Of a DNA stretch of 59,391 bases, positions 3,823 to 53,030 are shown piece after piece; within the stretch, counting starts at the first letter, position 1; every line of letters begins with the position of its first letter. Origin of the DNA: an uncultured Anaeroplasmataceae bacterium (GTDB lineage: Bacteria; Bacillota_I; Bacilli_A; Acholeplasmatales; Anaeroplasmataceae); the NCBI GenBank assembly GCA_947629825.1, contig CANRFF010000008.1, positions 1 through 59,391 on the forward strand, in the 5' to 3' direction. The notes under the pieces were generated by a model. That model saw nothing but the letters and a program-made list of their open reading frames with translations, did no database searches and was not told where the DNA came from. Both the position numbers and the translations under genes were made by a program.

Positions 3823-5229
3823 CTATTTCGGAATATATTTAGTAGTCGGTCCAGAACCAACCACTTTTATAATTTGTTTTTTAAGTAAAGAACTCAAAAT
3901 TTCTTTTGATCTCGTATTTTTTACTTCAAGTATATCTTCGACTACAATTCTTCTTATAGAGCCATATTGCTTAATATAATCTACGATAATCTGCTCTTGC
4001 TCAGTCAATTCTATTCCATTATTATTTTGATTACCAGTAATATTTTCATTATCATTTACGTCAAACAGATAATAATTGATGTTTGGAAGTTTAACTAAAA
4101 AGAAGTGATCAAACGGAATATATTCGGGCTTTTGTTTATAAGGTGCATAAGCTAAATTTGTTTTTTCAAATCCGGTAGCATAATTTTCGATATAGCCTAA
4201 TTGACTAAACAAATAAACTAAATTAGGATTTCTAAAGGATTGTCTGCCACTTAAAGCAGCTTCTAATGTGGTTTTATATAAAGAACCAGGAGATCCAATA
4301 TCTACTCTATCAGGAAAAAATTCAATTTTAATATTAGAGGGAGCATCTATATCCAAATGCATGAATGCATTGATAATCATTTCCCTAAGAGATGGTTCTG
4401 GATAGGATAGAACTTCTGTTCTTTGAAATTCTCCTGGTAGAAGTCTAGCGCTTACATCATTATATAATTTAACTTGTTCCAAAACATCATCAAGAATTTT
4501 AAGCCAAGAGCCACTAAATTCTTTTTTGACTCTAAAATCTAGTTTGGAATTCTTATAATATGCAAATTTTACAATATAAGGATTTTCATCACTGACTAAT
4601 AGTGCTAGGTTATTAAACTTGTCCTCGCTAGTTAGTAGTCTTAGTTTATGTAAAGCACTTTGATTGAATTCCTTTTGAACACTTTCAAGTTTATTTTTTA
4701 AATAAGAAAAATGTAAAATTTGAATTTTTGAAATTTGGCTTTCATAATGAAAATTATTAAAAGTTTTCCATAAATCACGCTCACGTTCCGGATAACCTTT
4801 TATATTTTTCGTAGAACTGCCAATTCTAATATAGGTTTCTCCAGAAAAACGAGTAGGTATCTTGTAAGCTGCGGGAATTTCAAGCAACAATATTTTCTTA
4901 AAATCTGAATAATCAAATTCATAGAATTTAAAGTCGATATCAGGATCAATAACTCTTTTTAACCAAGGCTCTAACTCTTCGTTTCCCTTTTTTTCTTTTC
5001 GATAGTTGTAAGCGGTTCCTATAACATCATGAGTGCTATCATCAATGCCAAATATCAAATATGCAAAAGGTCGACCTAACAAAGTGGCACCATTAGATAA
5101 GGCTGAAATGTCTTTAGCTATATTTTCAACTGATAGATAGTTGGATTTAAACTCTAACCACTCTGTTTCAGTCTTATTATTTAATCTTAATTTATCTACT
5201 AAGGCTATCAAATCTAAAGTTTGATACAT
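3823..5229 (-). CDS. Schlafen/AlbA_2-domain protein with C-terminal ATPase-like and winged-helix parts
   Basis: The N-terminal third has the AlbA_2 (divergent AAA_4, Schlafen-like) pattern: E-x-x-x-L-E-F-K near residue 28, then the I-A-K-D-I-S-A-L-S-N-G segment and a Y-L-I-F-G-I-D-D strand. The middle (S-L-R-E-M-I-I-N-A-F-M-H, then F-F-P-D-R-V-D-I-x-S-P-G) matches the HATPase_c_4-like region typical of these putative regulators. The last 70 residues form a winged-helix-like tail after an Asn-rich linker. I start at ATG 5229 because GGTGAT sits at the usual spacing; in-frame ATGs at 5235 and 5247 are alternatives. Family members are annotated as transcriptional regulators or helicase-like proteins and recur in mobile and defence regions. 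Precise role unknown. Confidence 0.85.
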   Translation of the reverse strand: MYQTLDLIALVDKLRLNNKTETEWLEFKSNYLSVENIAKDISALSNGATLLGRPFAYLIFGIDDSTHDVIGTAYNYRKEKKGNEELEPWLKRVIDPDIDFKFYEFDYSDFKKILLLEIPAAYKIPTRFSGETYIRIGSSTKNIKGYPERERDLWKTFNNFHYESQISKIQILHFSYLKNKLESVQKEFNQSALHKLRLLTSEDKFNNLALLVSDENPYIVKFAYYKNSKLDFRVKKEFSGSWLKILDDVLEQVKLYNDVSARLLPGEFQRTEVLSYPEPSLREMIINAFMHLDIDAPSNIKIEFFPDRVDIGSPGSLYKTTLEAALSGRQSFRNPNLVYLFSQLGYIENYATGFEKTNLAYAPYKQKPEYIPFDHFFLVKLPNINYYLFDVNDNENITGNQNNNGIELTEQEQIIVDYIKQYGSIRRIVVEDILEVKNTRSKEILSSLLKKQIIKVVGSGPTTKYIPK

Positions 5230-5328
5230 TTTCATCACCAATAACATTTTACCATAAAACTATTGAATTATCTATCCTTAAATGCCTATATAATTATTTA
5301 AAAAGTAATTAAAAGAATTATTAAAAAT

Positions 5329-5728: not shown

Positions 5729-5761
5729 TATTATAATATATTTTTGAATATAAAAAAATGG

Positions 5762-5835
<74 letters not shown>

Positions 5836-37745: not shown

Positions 37746-37830
37746 GGGGGAGTGATGAAATGGTAGACATAGTTGACTCAAAATCAACCGCCCTTAAAGC
37801 GTGTGGGTTCGACTCCCACCTCCCCTACCA
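37746..37830 (+). tRNA. tRNA-Leu (anticodon CAA)
   Basis: Acceptor GGGGGAG/CTCCCCT (one G-U pair), anticodon stem GTTGA/TCAAC around CTCAAAA (anticodon CAA, reading UUG), a variable arm CGCCCTTAAAGCGT, T-arm GTGGG-TTCGACT-CCCAC, and an encoded CCA (37828-37830). The long variable arm is typical of tRNA-Leu. Its 3' end is the left boundary of the second AT-rich island and part of a repeated sequence. Confidence 0.97.
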
Positions 37831-37872
37831 TATTAAAAGAATCGGATTGATATCATTGTCAATCTGTTTTTT
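37826..37872 (+). repeat. att-like direct repeat A: tRNA-Leu 3' end plus its terminator
   Basis: The 47-bp stretch from the last acceptor-stem base and ACCA through the T-run recurs at 41254-41300 with one mismatch and, diverged, at 47774. It contains the stem CGGATTGA/TCAATCTG plus TTTTTT, an intrinsic terminator for tRNA-Leu. A copy of a tRNA 3' end at a distance is the classic footprint of site-specific integration. Confidence 0.75.
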
Positions 37873-37970
37873 ATAGGGTTTGATACTCAGCATATAGGTT
37901 TATATGTTAATTTTTGACGTATACATCTATATGGTCAACATTGAGCATGGATTGAGAAGTATGGAGGTAA

Positions 37971-40082
37971 ATGAACTTGTTAGGAAAGACAATTTGGGAT
38001 ACTGTCGCCCAGTTTTTAAGTAAGGAACTTTCCATGAGTTTAGACAGTGTTGAACATTTAATGATGTATTTTCCAACTAAGCCTAAACGGCTTTTTGCTG
38101 TTCCTAGATATGGTTGGAAATTAACTATGTCTAAAGGACAAACAATTGCTGATGCTTTCCAAAAAGCTAAAGATCAATTTGGAATTAAATTTTTAAGAAA
38201 GGAAGAATTTTTCAAAGAATATGACTCTTTAAAAAATTTCATAGACAGAACAGAGTATAAATATGAAGAAAAGTTATCTAATTTGGCAAATGAACTTTCT
38301 AAAGGACTTAATGATTATACGCCGGGGTTTGACATCAATTCAAAAATGATACTTTTATTTCTTGAAAAAAAAGAAATGATTAATATTGATAAACATGGAT
38401 GTTATGCGGTAACTAATAAAGGTATAAAAATGGGTTTCAAAGCTGAAAATAGGATGAGTATGAATGATTGTTACTCTATTTTAATTTATGATGAAAAAGG
38501 TTTCAAATTTATAAGAAAATCTCTTCCTCCTATTATTTATACTTATTATGCCAAAAATCCATTAAACATTTACCACAATCACCCAAATAAAGAATTTGAA
38601 GTTAATTTAGCCGGTTTTGATCCATATGATGCCAAAATTAGGATTGATAGAATTTTGAACTATAAACCTTTAGCCGAGAAATATACATCTAGGCTTTCAA
38701 CAGAAGATTTGTCATTAGCTTTAAGCACGTTAAATTTTGTTGCATCAATAATTGATCCGGAATCGAATATAAAAGAATTTGTCAATTATATAGGATTGAA
38801 AACAAAAGCTTCTTCTAATTTCTATTGCTTAATCTGTAATAAATTAACACTTAGGTTCAACAATAAAAGTCAGATTGAATTGAAGAATGTAGATAAAAAT
38901 AAGATTATTGAGTTTGTGGATAAATATAAAGAAGATTTTAGTTTTGAAAAGGCTCGAATTCAGATGGGATTAATATTTGACCTTGATGGAACAGTTTTTG
39001 ATACAAATTGCATAAGAGATGAAAGAAGAAATCATGCAAATTGCATCTCTACGGAAAAATTGAACAAAATTCAACTGGTTGAAGGGTTTGAATCTTTGTT
39101 TTTAGATGAAAATTCTGAATTTTGCCTTAAAAATAACAAAATACTATTCATAACAAGCTCTCCTGAAGCATACGCTAAATACCTTTTAAAATTACATGGT
39201 CTCGATGGTTTTGAGTGTCATTACTCCTGTAGTATGAAAAAGTCAAAGCTAATTGTTGACTTTGTTAAAAGAAGTGGGTTGAAAAATTTCATTGCATTTG
39301 GCGATGAAGAAAAAGATGCCCAACTTTATTCTCAATGTAACATACCATTCTATATAGTTAATAAATATTATGGATATGATAATAAGCAGGACTTGCTAGC
39401 AAATGTCATAATTCCTAATGAAAAGGATTTTAGGCATGAGTTTATGTATGACATCATAAAAAAGAAATGTGATCTCAATACTAAATATTTCGATGATTTT
39501 ATTGTTTATTATTGTAGATATTATGATAAAACCGATTGTTGGGGAATTTGTCCTGATATGCCTGGGAGAAAAATATTTGAAAAAATTAAGTTTTCAGAAT
39601 TTAAAAATAAGAAGAGCGAATATGTTAGGAATCATTTACAAGATTTAATAATGAATGACTATAATAATATTCATGTTTCAATTAAAAACGCAGTGTTTGC
39701 AAGAGTGCCTGGACATGATGAAACTTCATTTAATCCAAATAGTCCATGTAGCATCCTAATAAAGGAACTCAGCAGAATTTATGGTTCAGAAAGAGACTAT
39801 TCGGATTTTTTGAAAAGAAATTCTGCCATAATGAATCATGATTATGGAAGAAACATTAAAGACCATATTGATACAATTGTTTCTATACCATCTAAAAAAA
39901 TTGAGGGTAAAACTGTCTATTTGTTTGATGATGTTGTGACTACAGGAACCCAAATGTCTGCCTGTATAGAAAAATTATATTCTGCTGGAGCAGGACATGT
40001 GGTTTGTTTTTGCATATGTAGAACATGTCCTCCGAAAAGGTTGCCATTAAATGAAATTGAAGGAGGATGTAGAAATGGCTGA
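37971..40082 (+). CDS. HAD phosphatase-phosphoribosyltransferase fusion with an unknown N-terminal domain
   Basis: ATG 37971 follows GGAGG. The 703-aa protein has three parts. Residues 1-325 are unrecognised, with a wHTH-like patch near 125-155 and scattered Cys/His. Residues 330-500 are a HAD hydrolase: F-D337-L-D339-G-T, I-T-S396-S, a Lys in S-M-K-K-S-K, and F-G-D-E-E-K-D. Residues 520-690 form a ComF-like phosphoribosyltransferase with the PRPP loop L-F-D653-D654-V-V-T-T-G-T. Such HAD-PRTase pairs occur in predicted nucleotide-metabolite and conflict systems. It overlaps the DprA-like gene by 8 bp, so the two products likely act together. AT-rich codon use differs from the core genes. Confidence 0.85.
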   Translation: MNLLGKTIWDTVAQFLSKELSMSLDSVEHLMMYFPTKPKRLFAVPRYGWKLTMSKGQTIADAFQKAKDQFGIKFLRKEEFFKEYDSLKNFIDRTEYKYEEKLSNLANELSKGLNDYTPGFDINSKMILLFLEKKEMINIDKHGCYAVTNKGIKMGFKAENRMSMNDCYSILIYDEKGFKFIRKSLPPIIYTYYAKNPLNIYHNHPNKEFEVNLAGFDPYDAKIRIDRILNYKPLAEKYTSRLSTEDLSLALSTLNFVASIIDPESNIKEFVNYIGLKTKASSNFYCLICNKLTLRFNNKSQIELKNVDKNKIIEFVDKYKEDFSFEKARIQMGLIFDLDGTVFDTNCIRDERRNHANCISTEKLNKIQLVEGFESLFLDENSEFCLKNNKILFITSSPEAYAKYLLKLHGLDGFECHYSCSMKKSKLIVDFVKRSGLKNFIAFGDEEKDAQLYSQCNIPFYIVNKYYGYDNKQDLLANVIIPNEKDFRHEFMYDIIKKKCDLNTKYFDDFIVYYCRYYDKTDCWGICPDMPGRKIFEKIKFSEFKNKKSEYVRNHLQDLIMNDYNNIHVSIKNAVFARVPGHDETSFNPNSPCSILIKELSRIYGSERDYSDFLKRNSAIMNHDYGRNIKDHIDTIVSIPSKKIEGKTVYLFDDVVTTGTQMSACIEKLYSAGAGHVVCFCICRTCPPKRLPLNEIEGGCRNG

Positions 40083-40989
40083 TTCAAGTAAACTCATTTT
40101 ATTGTTACAAAACGTAAACGGCGTTGGCGATGCGGCAATTAGAAAGCTAATTGTAAACGGCAAATTTAAAGAAACTATAGATGCTCAAATGACTTATGGT
40201 GCAATTCTTGCTTGGATAAAGAAGAATAAAATTTACTTTTCTAAAAAAGTAAACATTGCAACTTTAACCATTGATGATTTGAAACTTGCAAATGCCAAGA
40301 GAAAAGAAATTGAAGAATCATCTGCAAAACTTGGAATAAAAATTATTAGCTATTTTGATGAAGATTACCCTAAAAGATTTAAAGCTATGGCTTTCTCAAA
40401 AGGATGTGATTTCCCAGTTTTATTCTACTATCTTGGCGACATTAAATTACTTAATTCAGAGAAAATTTGTGCGATTATCGGAACAAGAAATGTATCACCT
40501 AAAGCAAAAGAGTATGGCATGAGAATTGCAAAGAAAATGGTTGATGATGGATATGTTATCGTTAGCGGTTTAGCAGAAGGCTGTGATACAATTGGACATA
40601 GAGGATGTCTTGATGCGGGCGGAAAAACCGTGGCAATCGTTGCTACTCCACTTAATACTATATTTCCCAAGACAAACAAAAACCTGCAAGATGAAATTCT
40701 AAAAAAAGGTGGTCTTGTAATCTCTGAATATCCTATAGGATTTAAGTTTGGTGCATTTGCATTTGTTCAAAGAGATAGACTTCAAACTTTAGGATCGGAT
40801 GTTGTTATTGCTCTCCAAACATCTATAGATGGAGGAACAATGCATGCATCTAAAGCTACGCATAAGTACCATAAAAAACTTATGACGATTGAACCATCAC
40901 TTATTGATGATGGAAATGTAACTGGAAATAAGGAATTGATTAATTTCTGGGGAGCCTCTTCAATAAATGAAGACTGGTTTCTAAACTAG
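40075..40989 (+). CDS. DprA/Smf-like protein paired with the HAD-PRTase
   Basis: The start is ATG 40075 behind GGAGG. The 304-aa product has a helical N-terminus with helix-hairpin-helix-like N-V-N-G-V-G-D-A. It also has the DprA Rossmann domain: I-I-G136-T-R138-N, V-S164-G-L-A-E-G-C-D, then I-F-P-K-T-N and I-S-E-Y-P-I-G. Canonical DprA binds ssDNA and loads RecA in transformation. This copy sits in an island with a PRTase rather than with topA, so a role in defence or nucleotide-derivative handling is more likely. It lacks a C-terminal winged helix, yet wHTH-like codons follow in the same frame after three stops. Confidence 0.88.
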   Translation: MADSSKLILLLQNVNGVGDAAIRKLIVNGKFKETIDAQMTYGAILAWIKKNKIYFSKKVNIATLTIDDLKLANAKRKEIEESSAKLGIKIISYFDEDYPKRFKAMAFSKGCDFPVLFYYLGDIKLLNSEKICAIIGTRNVSPKAKEYGMRIAKKMVDDGYVIVSGLAEGCDTIGHRGCLDAGGKTVAIVATPLNTIFPKTNKNLQDEILKKGGLVISEYPIGFKFGAFAFVQRDRLQTLGSDVVIALQTSIDGGTMHASKATHKYHKKLMTIEPSLIDDGNVTGNKELINFWGASSINEDWFLN

Positions 40990-41169
40990 GATTCCATTTG
41001 ATAAAAATTTTTCGAAAAACAAAATGTCGCTTTAAATTTGACAGATTTAGAAGACAATGTAATAAAAATATTGTTAGAAAAACCAAATTCTACTGCAGAA
41101 ACAATTTCAAATGATTGTTACTATCAAAAAGAACAATTGAAAGAATTTTTAAAGTGTATAAAAAAGTGA
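40990..41169 (+). pseudogene. Winged-helix-like remnant in frame with the dprA-like gene
   Basis: After the TAG (40987-40989) and further in-frame stops (TGA 40999, TAA 41002), the same frame is open to TGA 41167-41169. It encodes N-L-T-D-L-E-D-N-V-I-K-I-L-L-E-K-P and further helix-turn-helix-like sequence. This resembles the short winged-helix tail that many DprA proteins carry. There is no start codon with a ribosome site. It probably is the decayed C-terminus of the gene, though a sequencing error or chance are possible. Confidence 0.5.
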
Positions 41170-41253: not shown

Positions 41254-41300
41254 TACCATATTAAAAGAATCGGATTGATATCATTGTCAGTCTGTTTTTT
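41254..41300 (+). repeat. att-like direct repeat B
   Basis: Identical to repeat A over 46 of 47 positions (TACCATATTAAAAG... to the T-run), but without a tRNA in front. It marks the right end of the HAD-PRTase/DprA segment and the left end of the redox segment. Confidence 0.8.
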
Positions 41301-41352
41301 TTATATCTTTTGTGAAGTATTTTAAAAATAAGAGAGTTAGCCATACGGAATT

Positions 41353-47737: not shown

Positions 47738-47843
47738 TTCATTTGTGTACATTGTATCAAAATGGTATTCTCTTGCCATGAAATAAAACCGGATTGATAT
47801 CATCGTCAATCTGGTTTTTTTGTTGAGTTTGAATCTCAGCATC
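47738..47843 (+). repeat. att-like direct repeat C (diverged)
   Basis: CGGATTGATATCATCGTCAA... at 47790 and the following T-run match repeats A and B with several differences. To its left, CATTGTATCAAAATGGTA matches the left flank of repeat B. To its right, GAGTTTGAATCTCAGCAT matches the right flank of repeat A. It therefore joins both flank types, as expected at the junction of two stacked insertions. Confidence 0.6.
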
Positions 47844-49190: not shown

Positions 49191-49219
49191 TTGACATGCA
49201 TTGTTTTTTTTTATATAAT
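49191..49219 (+). promoter_or_regulatory. Perfect consensus promoter of the lipoprotein array
   Basis: TTGACA (49191-49196) and TATAAT (49214-49219) are exactly 17 bp apart, 34 nt before the first lipoprotein ATG. It is the only promoter of this strength in the island, and the later copies lack their own, so all three are likely one transcript. Confidence 0.85.
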
Positions 49220-49252
49220 AAGGCAAAAAATAAAAAGAGGATGGGTATTAAA

Positions 49253-49804
49253 ATGAAAAAAACAGTTACGTTGGTTCTTATTTTCTTTTTAGTGGGGATA
49301 TTATGTGGTTGTAGGAAAATTGTGCCGGTTAAGGATGAATTTTTTTCAGAAGAAACATTAGAAGAATGTAATCTTAAAGGACTTCCGAAACCTACGGGCA
49401 AGTATGCTTGTTTTTCAAATTACCTCTATCTTCTTATGACTCAAGAAGAGTATGATACGTATAAGTTGGAAGTGACAAAATACATTTCCGAAAGAGAAGA
49501 TATCGTATTTTGGGGAACTACGGAATATGAATTTTATAAGGTGGATGTTGAATTTGCACCAACGCCGTTATATGTTTATCAATATGATAGTATTGAAGAA
49601 TATGTTACTAAAAAATACTTCTTGTCAATACCATTTACAACAATGGAATTAGATGAAGAAGGAAAATATCAGAATTGTTTTGGTGTTTGTTTAAATAACA
49701 CTGCAAATCAAATAAGATTGTCTAATGGAGATATGTTTTATTATAATCATCGTATGATTATTTATGAATATACTCCTGCGGATAGATTATATACTCAAAA
49801 ATAA
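49253..49804 (+). CDS. Lipoprotein, copy 1 of 3 (183 aa)
   Basis: Signal peptide with lipobox ending L-C-G-C20. The mature part is acidic and aromatic-rich (Y-V-Y-Q-Y-D-S-I-E-E-Y, Y-N-H-R-M-I-I-Y-E-Y-T) with four further Cys that may form disulfides outside the cell. Start ATG 49253 is behind AGAGGATGGG-like sequence; the frame extension upstream crosses the promoter. Family not recognised. It is about 90% identical to the two following copies. Confidence 0.85.
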   Translation: MKKTVTLVLIFFLVGILCGCRKIVPVKDEFFSEETLEECNLKGLPKPTGKYACFSNYLYLLMTQEEYDTYKLEVTKYISEREDIVFWGTTEYEFYKVDVEFAPTPLYVYQYDSIEEYVTKKYFLSIPFTTMELDEEGKYQNCFGVCLNNTANQIRLSNGDMFYYNHRMIIYEYTPADRLYTQK

Positions 49805-49823
49805 AAAGGGGAGAGATATTAAA

Positions 49824-50375
49824 ATGAAAAAAACAGTTACGGTCGTTCTTATTTTCTTTTTAGTGGGGATATTATGTGGTTGTAAGAAAATTGCGCCGGT
49901 TAAGGATGAATTTTTTTCAGAAGAAACATTAGAAGAATGTAATCTTAAAGGACTTCCGAAACCTGCGGGCAAGTATGCTTGTTTTTCAAATTACCTCTAT
50001 CTTTTTATGACTCAAGAAGAGTATGATACGTATAAGTTGGAAGTGACAAAATACATTTCCGAAAGAGAAGATATCGTATTTTGGGGAACTACGGAATATG
50101 CATTTTATAAGGTTGATGTTGATATTGCGCCAAAGCCGAAATATGTTTATCAATATGATAGTATCGAAGAATATGTTACTGAAAAAGACTTCTTGTCAAT
50201 ACCATTTACAACAATGGAATTGGATGAAGAAGGAAAATATCAGAATTGTTTTGGTGTTTGTTTAGATGATATTGCAAATCAAAAAATCTTGTCTAATGGA
50301 GAATGGTTTTATTATAATCATCGTATGATTATTTATGAATATACTCCTGCGGATATATTATATACTCAAAAATAA
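49824..50375 (+). CDS. Lipoprotein, copy 2 of 3 (183 aa)
   Basis: Same length and layout as copy 1, beginning exactly 571 bp later. Ribosome site GGGGAG sits in the 19-nt gap. Differences cluster around residues 100-115 (D-V-D-I-A-P-K-P-K versus D-V-E-F-A-P-T-P-L) and 155-165 (D-D-I-A-N-Q-K-I versus N-N-T-A-N-Q-I-R), while the N-terminal 90 residues are nearly invariant. Confidence 0.85.
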   Translation: MKKTVTVVLIFFLVGILCGCKKIAPVKDEFFSEETLEECNLKGLPKPAGKYACFSNYLYLFMTQEEYDTYKLEVTKYISEREDIVFWGTTEYAFYKVDVDIAPKPKYVYQYDSIEEYVTEKDFLSIPFTTMELDEEGKYQNCFGVCLDDIANQKILSNGEWFYYNHRMIIYEYTPADILYTQK

Positions 50376-50394
50376 AAAGGGGAGGGATATTAAA

Positions 50395-50946
50395 ATGAAA
50401 AAAACAGTTACGTTGGTTCTTATTTTCTTTTTAGTGGGGATATTATGTGGTTGTAAGAAAATTGTGCCGGTTAAAGATGAATTTTTTTCAGAAGAAACAT
50501 TAGAAGAATGTAATCTTAAAGGACTTCCGAAACCTGCGGGCAAGTATGCTTGTTTTTCAAATGAACTATATCTTCTTATGACTCAAGAAGAGTATGATGT
50601 ATATCGGTGGGAAGTGACAAAATACATTTCCGAAAGAGAAGATATCGTATTTTGGGGAACTACGGAATATCAATTTTATAAGTCATATGTTGAATTTGCA
50701 CCAACGCCGATATATGTTTATCAATATGATAGTATTGAAGAATATGTTACTAAAAAAGACATTCTGTCAATACCATTTACAACAATAGAATTGGATGAAG
50801 AAGGAAAATATCAAAATTGTTTTGGTGTTTGTTTAAATAACACGGCAAATCAAATAAGATTATCTAATGGAGAATGGTTTTATTATAATCATTGTATGAT
50901 TATTTACGAATATACTCCTGCGGATAGATTATATACTCAAAAATAA
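50395..50946 (+). CDS. Lipoprotein, copy 3 of 3 (183 aa)
   Basis: Begins again exactly 571 bp after copy 2. It shares the invariant N-terminus but differs at residues 63-76 (N-E-L-Y-L... D-V-Y-R-W) and 102-107 (K-S-Y-V-E-F). Its C-terminal half is closer to copy 1 than to copy 2, suggesting gene conversion or repeated unequal crossover. The spacer after it is different sequence, so the array ends here. Confidence 0.85.
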   Translation: MKKTVTLVLIFFLVGILCGCKKIVPVKDEFFSEETLEECNLKGLPKPAGKYACFSNELYLLMTQEEYDVYRWEVTKYISEREDIVFWGTTEYQFYKSYVEFAPTPIYVYQYDSIEEYVTKKDILSIPFTTIELDEEGKYQNCFGVCLNNTANQIRLSNGEWFYYNHCMIIYEYTPADRLYTQK

Positions 50947-52217: not shown

Positions 52218-53030
52218 ATGTATTCAACGAACGAAAAACCAAATGAAATGGAGAATTTATATAATAGTTTATTTGATTTAAAAGAAGTCTATAAACTGTT
52301 GTATGATATTTCCAAGTCATTAAGAGTATCAATTGATTATGAAACGATAAAACTCATTTGTTATAATTTCAAGGAACCCAGTTCAAAAGAAGAAACTTTT
52401 GTGTATGAATGGTTGCAAATATTTTACATCTGTTATTTAAATAGAGTCCATATCCATTCAAAATATGAAAAAAATAAATATGTGAAACGATATCAGTCGT
52501 TAGATCATCCTAATTATATTAGATCTGTTTTTGAGAAATTTAGTCATGAAAGTAAATTTGAACAGGGTACATTGCTTATCATTTTATCAATCTTGATTTC
52601 AAAAAATGAAGGTATTATATTCCGTTATTTTGATGATGTATTTCATATTTTTGACATTGAAAACATAAATTATATCGCAGATTATTTGGAAGGCTTTATA
52701 GAAACATTTAAATGTACGGCACCAAAAAGAAAAAAATTAAGCCAAGTACTTACTATTTTGAAAGATAATATAGCTTTTTTCAAGAAAGAAAAAATAAAAA
52801 GTTTATTTTTATTTGGATCTATAGTCAAAGGAAGTCACACATCCAAAAGTGACATAGATTTACTAGTTTATTTTGACGATATTCCGTCTTTCGAGAAGGA
52901 AATACATTGCAGAAAAGTGTCAACACATATCAGTAATATATTGGATTGCGGGTGTGATATTGTTGAAGAAAAAGAAGTGTTGTATGATACGATTACTGAT
53001 GCAATAAGGACATCTATAAGAATATTTTAA
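52218..53030 (+). CDS. Minimal-nucleotidyltransferase-domain protein (270 aa)
   Basis: Residues 193-265 contain L-F-G-S-I-V-K-G-S-H-T-S-K-S-D-I-D, an exact G-S-x10-D-x-D match to the MNT (DNA polymerase beta-like) nucleotidyltransferase motif with its two metal-binding Asp. The N-terminal 185 residues are helical and unrecognised. MNT proteins often transfer AMP to HEPN toxins as antitoxins; here the partner is a lipase-like hydrolase instead. It starts 2 bp after that gene. A terminator follows. Confidence 0.85.
   Translation: MYSTNEKPNEMENLYNSLFDLKEVYKLLYDISKSLRVSIDYETIKLICYNFKEPSSKEETFVYEWLQIFYICYLNRVHIHSKYEKNKYVKRYQSLDHPNYIRSVFEKFSHESKFEQGTLLIILSILISKNEGIIFRYFDDVFHIFDIENINYIADYLEGFIETFKCTAPKRKKLSQVLTILKDNIAFFKKEKIKSLFLFGSIVKGSHTSKSDIDLLVYFDDIPSFEKEIHCRKVSTHISNILDCGCDIVEEKEVLYDTITDAIRTSIRIF

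What the first reader, a model, noticed from the sequence alone, without database searches (positions are those of the whole stretch)
37971..41169. HAD-phosphoribosyltransferase fusion coupled to a DprA-like protein in a tRNA-Leu island
Seen: a 703-aa protein with about 325 unrecognised residues, an intact HAD motif set (D337, D339, S396) and an intact PRPP loop (D653-D654). It overlaps by 8 bp a DprA-like gene with GTR and SGLAEG motifs. Known: DprA handles ssDNA; PRTase and HAD enzymes occur together in predicted nucleotide-metabolite conflict systems. Inference: the pair senses foreign or single-stranded DNA and alters a nucleotide or base as an effector. Island location and AT-rich codon use support an acquired defence role.
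Basis: partly seen in the sequence, partly recalled or inferred. Interest (0 to 1): 0.8.

Follow-up and report, generated by a model that had tools for sequence, protein, structure and literature searches.

The report
ShosTA phage-defence toxin–antitoxin pair
Next to a leucine-tRNA gene this bacterium carries a two-gene toxin–antitoxin pair of the already described anti-phage system ShosTA; what is unusual is that its toxin has an extra 325-residue front part for which no relative could be found.

Summary
In detail: a 703-aa protein (37971-40082) with intact HAD and PRPP-loop motifs overlaps by 8 bp a DprA-like gene (40075-40989; the gene stops there, not at 41169). The pair is not a new system. 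PADLOC identifies the DprA-like protein as ShosA (E 3e-66) and the PRTase end of the large protein as ShosT (E 1.4e-14): ShosTA, a toxin–antitoxin system already shown to give phage resistance. The HAD–PRTase fusion is also known: a phage record annotates such a protein as ShosT, and an E. coli P2-phage ShosT contains a degenerate HAD. Of 80 viral loci with ShosA relatives, 66 have a PRTase beside it, 15 of them fused to HAD. New here: an N-terminal ~325-aa region without detectable relatives. The pair is accessory and sits directly downstream of tRNA-Leu(CAA), a variable site in the genus, between two near-identical 50-bp copies of the tRNA terminator. Likely mechanism: ShosA restrains ShosT; phage-induced disturbance of host transcription or DNA metabolism frees ShosT, which perturbs purine/PRPP metabolism and damages DNA. 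The mechanism is inferred from published relatives; nothing here tests toxicity or defence.

The parts
37971..40082 (+). shosT-like toxin gene, 703 aa: N-terminal region of unknown kind (1-325), HAD phosphatase domain (about 330-490), ComF-like phosphoribosyltransferase domain (about 500-690)
   Evidence: PADLOC ShosT E 1.4e-14 over residues 542-688; NCBIfam comF E 2.7e-10; profiles built without the window sequence find HAD (E 2.8e-9) and PRTase (E 1.7e-15), Z set to 1000
37971..38945 (+). coding region of residues 1-325, no detectable relative
   Evidence: no match in plasmids, viral contigs or genome contigs and no credible Pfam match nor among 5491 ORFs of loci held
38976..38993 (+). HAD motif I FDLDGT (residues 336-341; D337, D339)
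39921..39947 (+). PRPP-binding loop LFDDVVTTG (residues 651-659; D653, D654)
40075..40989 (+). shosA-like antitoxin gene, DprA/Smf (SLOG) protein of 304 aa, overlapping shosT by 8 bp
   Evidence: PADLOC ShosA E 3e-66; Pfam DNA_processg_A E 3.1e-47; PDB 9vzo 'DprA-like antitoxin protein ShosA' E 1.1e-19
37746..37830 (+). tRNA-Leu(CAA), whose 3' side is a variable site in the genus
37826..37875 (+). left copy of 50-bp direct repeat: last 5 bases of the tRNA plus its terminator hairpin
   Evidence: 48 of 50 identical to the right copy; hairpin and T-run
41254..41303 (+). right copy of the 50-bp repeat, with no tRNA before it; the two copies bracket shosTA

Best explanation
The pair is a ShosTA toxin-antitoxin system used in abortive anti-phage defence. 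ShosT is the toxin: its PRTase domain uses PRPP (inferred from the intact PRPP loop) and its HAD domain probably removes a phosphate or pyrophosphate, so together they disturb purine/PRPP metabolism, cause DNA damage and stop growth. ShosA, a DprA-like DNA-binding protein probably made from the same transcript by overlapping translation, holds ShosT in check in healthy cells. When a phage disturbs host transcription or DNA replication, the restraint is lost and the infected cell is sacrificed. Shown here: identity of both genes, domain order, motif integrity, gene overlap, accessory distribution and location. Inferred from published ShosTA and RqlHI: toxicity, neutralisation, trigger and metabolic target. 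The N-terminal 325 residues may tune sensing or ShosA binding; this is a guess.
For: Both genes hit the ShosTA profiles. A ShosA relative in the PDB is named as ShosA antitoxin. HAD-PRTase proteins lie beside DprA-like genes: PfAC02a record annotated 'ShosT'/'ShosA', Psychrobacter and Priestia plasmids; an E. coli P2-like phage ShosT has the same HAD-PRTase order. PRTase, DprA and HAD also occur as three separate neighbouring genes. 66 of 80 viral loci have a PRTase beside the ShosA relative, 15 fused with HAD, and one more has HAD only. Profiles made without the window still find both its HAD and PRTase. Published: a DprA-PRTase pair protects E. coli from T7 and lambda (PMC9122126); ShosT is described as PRTase and pyrophosphatase disturbing purine metabolism, with ShosA binding DNA (review PMC12593503); in RqlH a D663A change in the PRPP pocket abolished the effects on growth, SOS response and filamentation (PMC4670107).
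Against: The ShosT match covers only the PRTase part; the HAD is below Pfam's cut-off. No close homologue of the whole toxin was found, so function is carried over across about 20-45% identity in short stretches. The N-terminal region could change the activity. No experiment on this pair.
Confidence: 0.85

Rival explanations
1. The DprA-like protein is the cell's own transformation DprA and the large protein a ComF-like competence helper; the pair serves DNA uptake.
For: It is the only DprA-family protein found in this genome; the PRTase domain is ComF-like.
Against: Scores higher as ShosA (221.8 bits) than as dprA (140.3 bits, below the 191 cut-off). No close match in most genus and family members searched at E 1e-20; the two family members that match, G045 and G027, also have a PRTase next to it. 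Low GC3 and tRNA-side location.
Confidence: 0.07
2. A PsyrTA/RqlHI-type system, in which the PRTase toxin is fused to a RecQ helicase.
For: PsyrA and PsyrT profiles match more weakly; a true example exists in the same order (G073, L008).
Against: No helicase domain in the 703-aa protein; ShosA and ShosT profiles score much better.
Confidence: 0.03
3. Same genes, but the large N-terminal region has turned the pair into a different conflict system, for example with its own sensor, in which HAD-PRTase makes or destroys a specific nucleotide signal.
For: Residues 1-325 have no relatives and are not in other ShosT proteins; the HAD catalytic Asp is intact, unlike the E. coli P2-phage ShosT.
Against: No direct evidence for a different activity; toxin partners of DprA-like proteins often carry different N-terminal parts, such as Sel1-like repeats or RecQ.
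Confidence: 0.15

Closest known systems
ShosTA of Pseudomonas phage PfAC02a (OR790968, annotated ShosT/ShosA)
   Same: HAD followed by PRTase in one protein, intact HAD motif I, DprA-like gene directly downstream, carried by a mobile element
   Different: 478 aa without the 325-aa N-terminal region; C-terminal zinc ribbons that are absent here
ShosTA of E. coli P2-like phages (P2_4C9; PADLOC PDLC03012)
   Same: HAD-PRTase order, adjacent DprA-like gene; a DprA-PRTase pair from the P2 hotspot is experimentally defensive (PMC9122126)
   Different: HAD motif I is degenerate (FSIAD instead of FDLDG), gene order shosA then shosT, 424 aa
Split PRTase-DprA-HAD trios (Segatella copri, Sinorhizobium meliloti, Rhizobium and Bermanella plasmids)
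   Same: the same three parts next to each other
   Different: HAD and PRTase are separate genes
PsyrTA / RqlHI
   Same: PRTase toxin with a DprA-like antitoxin; the PRTase domain causes the toxicity in RqlH (PMC4670107)
   Different: toxin carries a RecQ helicase, not HAD

Membership tests
ShosTA | DprA-like antitoxin matching the ShosA profile | tested here: met
   PDLC03961 E 3e-66
ShosTA | PRTase toxin matching the ShosT profile with intact PRPP loop | tested here: met
   PDLC03962 E 1.4e-14 over residues 542-688; LFDDVVTTG
ShosTA | the two genes adjacent and in one operon | tested here: met
   8-bp overlap with ribosome-binding site; transcription itself not tested
ShosTA | HAD-PRTase architecture as in full-length ShosT (PDLC03012) | tested here: met
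   same order by profiles made without the window, but with an extra N-terminal 325 aa; PDLC03012 itself does not match this protein
ShosTA | toxin kills or arrests cells, antitoxin neutralises it | not testable with these tools
   needs expression assay
ShosTA | protects against phage | not testable with these tools
   needs phage assay
PsyrTA/RqlHI | RecQ helicase fused to the PRTase | tested here: not met
   no helicase match in Pfam
Housekeeping DprA/ComF competence genes | passes the curated dprA equivalog cut-off | tested here: not met
   TIGR00732 140.3 bits, cut-off 191.15

The most novel reading that the evidence does not exclude
Residues 1-325 are an unrecognised sensor or effector domain that gives this ShosTA branch a trigger or target different from known ShosTA.
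Probability: 0.15. Interest if true: 0.5.

Novelty: new variant of a known kind. Interest (0 to 1): 0.3.

Why it matters
The experimental work on ShosTA that I could read about is in E. coli. This adds a divergent member in a small-genome bacterium, and the comparison shows HAD, PRTase and DprA as one recurrent three-part module that is fused, split or reordered. That makes it testable whether the HAD activity, intact here and degenerate in the E. coli P2-phage protein, is needed for toxicity.

Tried and rejected
Searches with the whole toxin in phages, plasmids, viral contigs and genome contigs gave nothing; 392 genomes of the phylum gave only PRTase-end matches. The N-terminal region alone gave nothing. 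AlphaFold without an alignment gave pLDDT 33, useless, so no fold search was made. The main mechanism paper (Pu et al. 2025, Nat Commun 16:3141) is not held; its content is cited only through a review. Most other ShosT-profile matches in the order are PRTase-type frames of about 170-240 aa without a DprA-like neighbour in the fetched stretch and were set aside as probable housekeeping PRTases. A read-through of shosA to 41169 was rejected because three stops of different kinds (TAG, TGA, TAA) intervene. The idea that the 50-bp repeat is unique was rejected: weaker copies follow other tRNA genes.

Full report
What is there. The window holds a 703-aa ORF at 37971-40082 and a DprA-like ORF whose best start is 40075, overlapping by 8 bp and ending at 40989. 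The end coordinate 41169 is not the gene end: 40990-41169 is in frame but behind further stops, and related proteins end at similar length.

Identity. PADLOC calls the second protein ShosA (E 3e-66) and the PRTase end of the first ShosT (E 1.4e-14). NCBIfam gives comF for the PRTase (E 2.7e-10) and a below-cut-off dprA match. Profiles built from ShosT relatives without the window sequence recognise its HAD (E 2.8e-9) and PRTase (E 1.7e-15). The PDB holds a relative named DprA-like antitoxin protein ShosA (9vzo).

Relatives. In annotated plasmids and phages, DprA-like relatives are commonly next to a PRTase, a HAD protein or a HAD–PRTase fusion. Clear exceptions were DprA genes without such neighbours in Cetobacterium, Parabacteroides and Salmonella, and a few records were unclear or unannotated. 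PfAC02a annotates its HAD–PRTase as ShosT. The P2_4C9 phage ShosT matches the full-length ShosT model (E 3e-294) and carries HAD before PRTase, with a degenerate HAD motif I. In 80 viral loci, 49 have a PRTase neighbour, 15 a HAD–PRTase fusion, 2 separate PRTase and HAD, 1 HAD only, 13 none detected, 4 of those near a contig edge. These 80 are the closest relatives of the query and include near-identical phages, so the count is not of independent events. In the window's own order, G027 pairs a Sel1-like-repeat PRTase protein with a DprA-like gene, G045 a 375-aa PRTase protein, and G073 a RecQ–PRTase protein (PsyrTA type).

What differs. Residues 1-325 have no credible relative in Pfam, plasmids, viral contigs, genome contigs or any locus held. 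Other HAD–PRTase ShosT proteins examined are mostly about 400-490 aa (576 aa in Priestia, where PRTase precedes HAD). This absence of evidence depends on the collections; metagenomes could not be searched.

Setting. ShosT of this kind is in 1 of 55 genomes of the family; two others match only at the PRTase end. It is the only DprA-family protein found in this genome. All 11 genus genomes carry the upstream glycosyltransferase; in the ten relatives it is followed by tRNA-Leu(CAA) and then by different sequence in nearly every genome. Here the pair lies between two 50-bp copies, 48 of 50 identical, that begin with the last five bases of the tRNA and form a terminator hairpin. Related, weaker copies follow other tRNA genes, tRNA-Leu(GAG) and tRNA-Gly, in this genome, so the repeat is a tRNA terminator; its displaced right copy is what one expects if a 3.4-kb unit was inserted at the tRNA end. 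No integrase lies inside the unit. Insertion is an inference; no empty site was seen.

Mechanism. From published work: a DprA–PRTase pair from a P2-like phage protects E. coli against T7 and lambda, and DprA homologues act as antitoxins in shosTA and rqlHI (PMC9122126). A review states that ShosT is a PRTase and pyrophosphatase that disturbs purine metabolism, that ShosA binds DNA, and that T7 Gp0.7 is a trigger (PMC12593503). In RqlH, the D663A change in the PRPP pocket removes the effects on growth, SOS and filamentation (PMC4670107). The intact PRPP loop and HAD motif here make the same mode of action the best estimate, but none of it was tested on this pair.

Verdict. A divergent ShosTA with an extra N-terminal region: a variant of a known kind, of modest interest.

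Noticed in passing
window 37826-37875, 41254-41303, 47787-47842: Three copies of a tRNA-terminator-like repeat downstream of tRNA-Leu; the second and third lack a tRNA and share the preceding bases ATGGTA(C/T)TCT. They may mark two units added in tandem: shosTA, then a LysR/flavodoxin/aldo-keto-reductase block.
   Followed up: partly
C-termini of ShosA relatives, e.g. L070, L072, L075, L078, L109, L115, L142, L190, L197: Many ShosA proteins paired with HAD/PRTase end in a sliding-clamp-binding-like motif (QISMDF, QLSLL, QLNMF, QMTLF, QMSML, QLNIF). The window ShosA lacks it. I did not check whether this is already published.
   Followed up: partly
window 41041-41169: Stop-free 42-codon stretch in the frame of shosA but behind three stops, reading like a short winged-helix segment (LEDNVIKILLEKPNSTAETISND); no Pfam support.
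   Followed up: partly
window 49196-50946: Three tandem, nearly identical lipoprotein-like genes of about 202-203 aa; distant relatives lie near the same tRNA-Leu in G046.
   Followed up: no
window 52218-53030: Nucleotidyltransferase (Polbeta/MNT type) protein matching the candidate-defence profile PDC-S09 (E 2.9e-12).
   Followed up: no
window 3823-5247, next to tRNA-Arg 5759-5835: Protein of 474 aa with weak matches to defence profiles, in a second AT-rich stretch beside a tRNA.
   Followed up: no
L076 3374-4792 (Deinococcus plasmid): A HAD domain fused directly to a DprA-like protein with no PRTase annotated nearby, another arrangement of the same parts.
   Followed up: no
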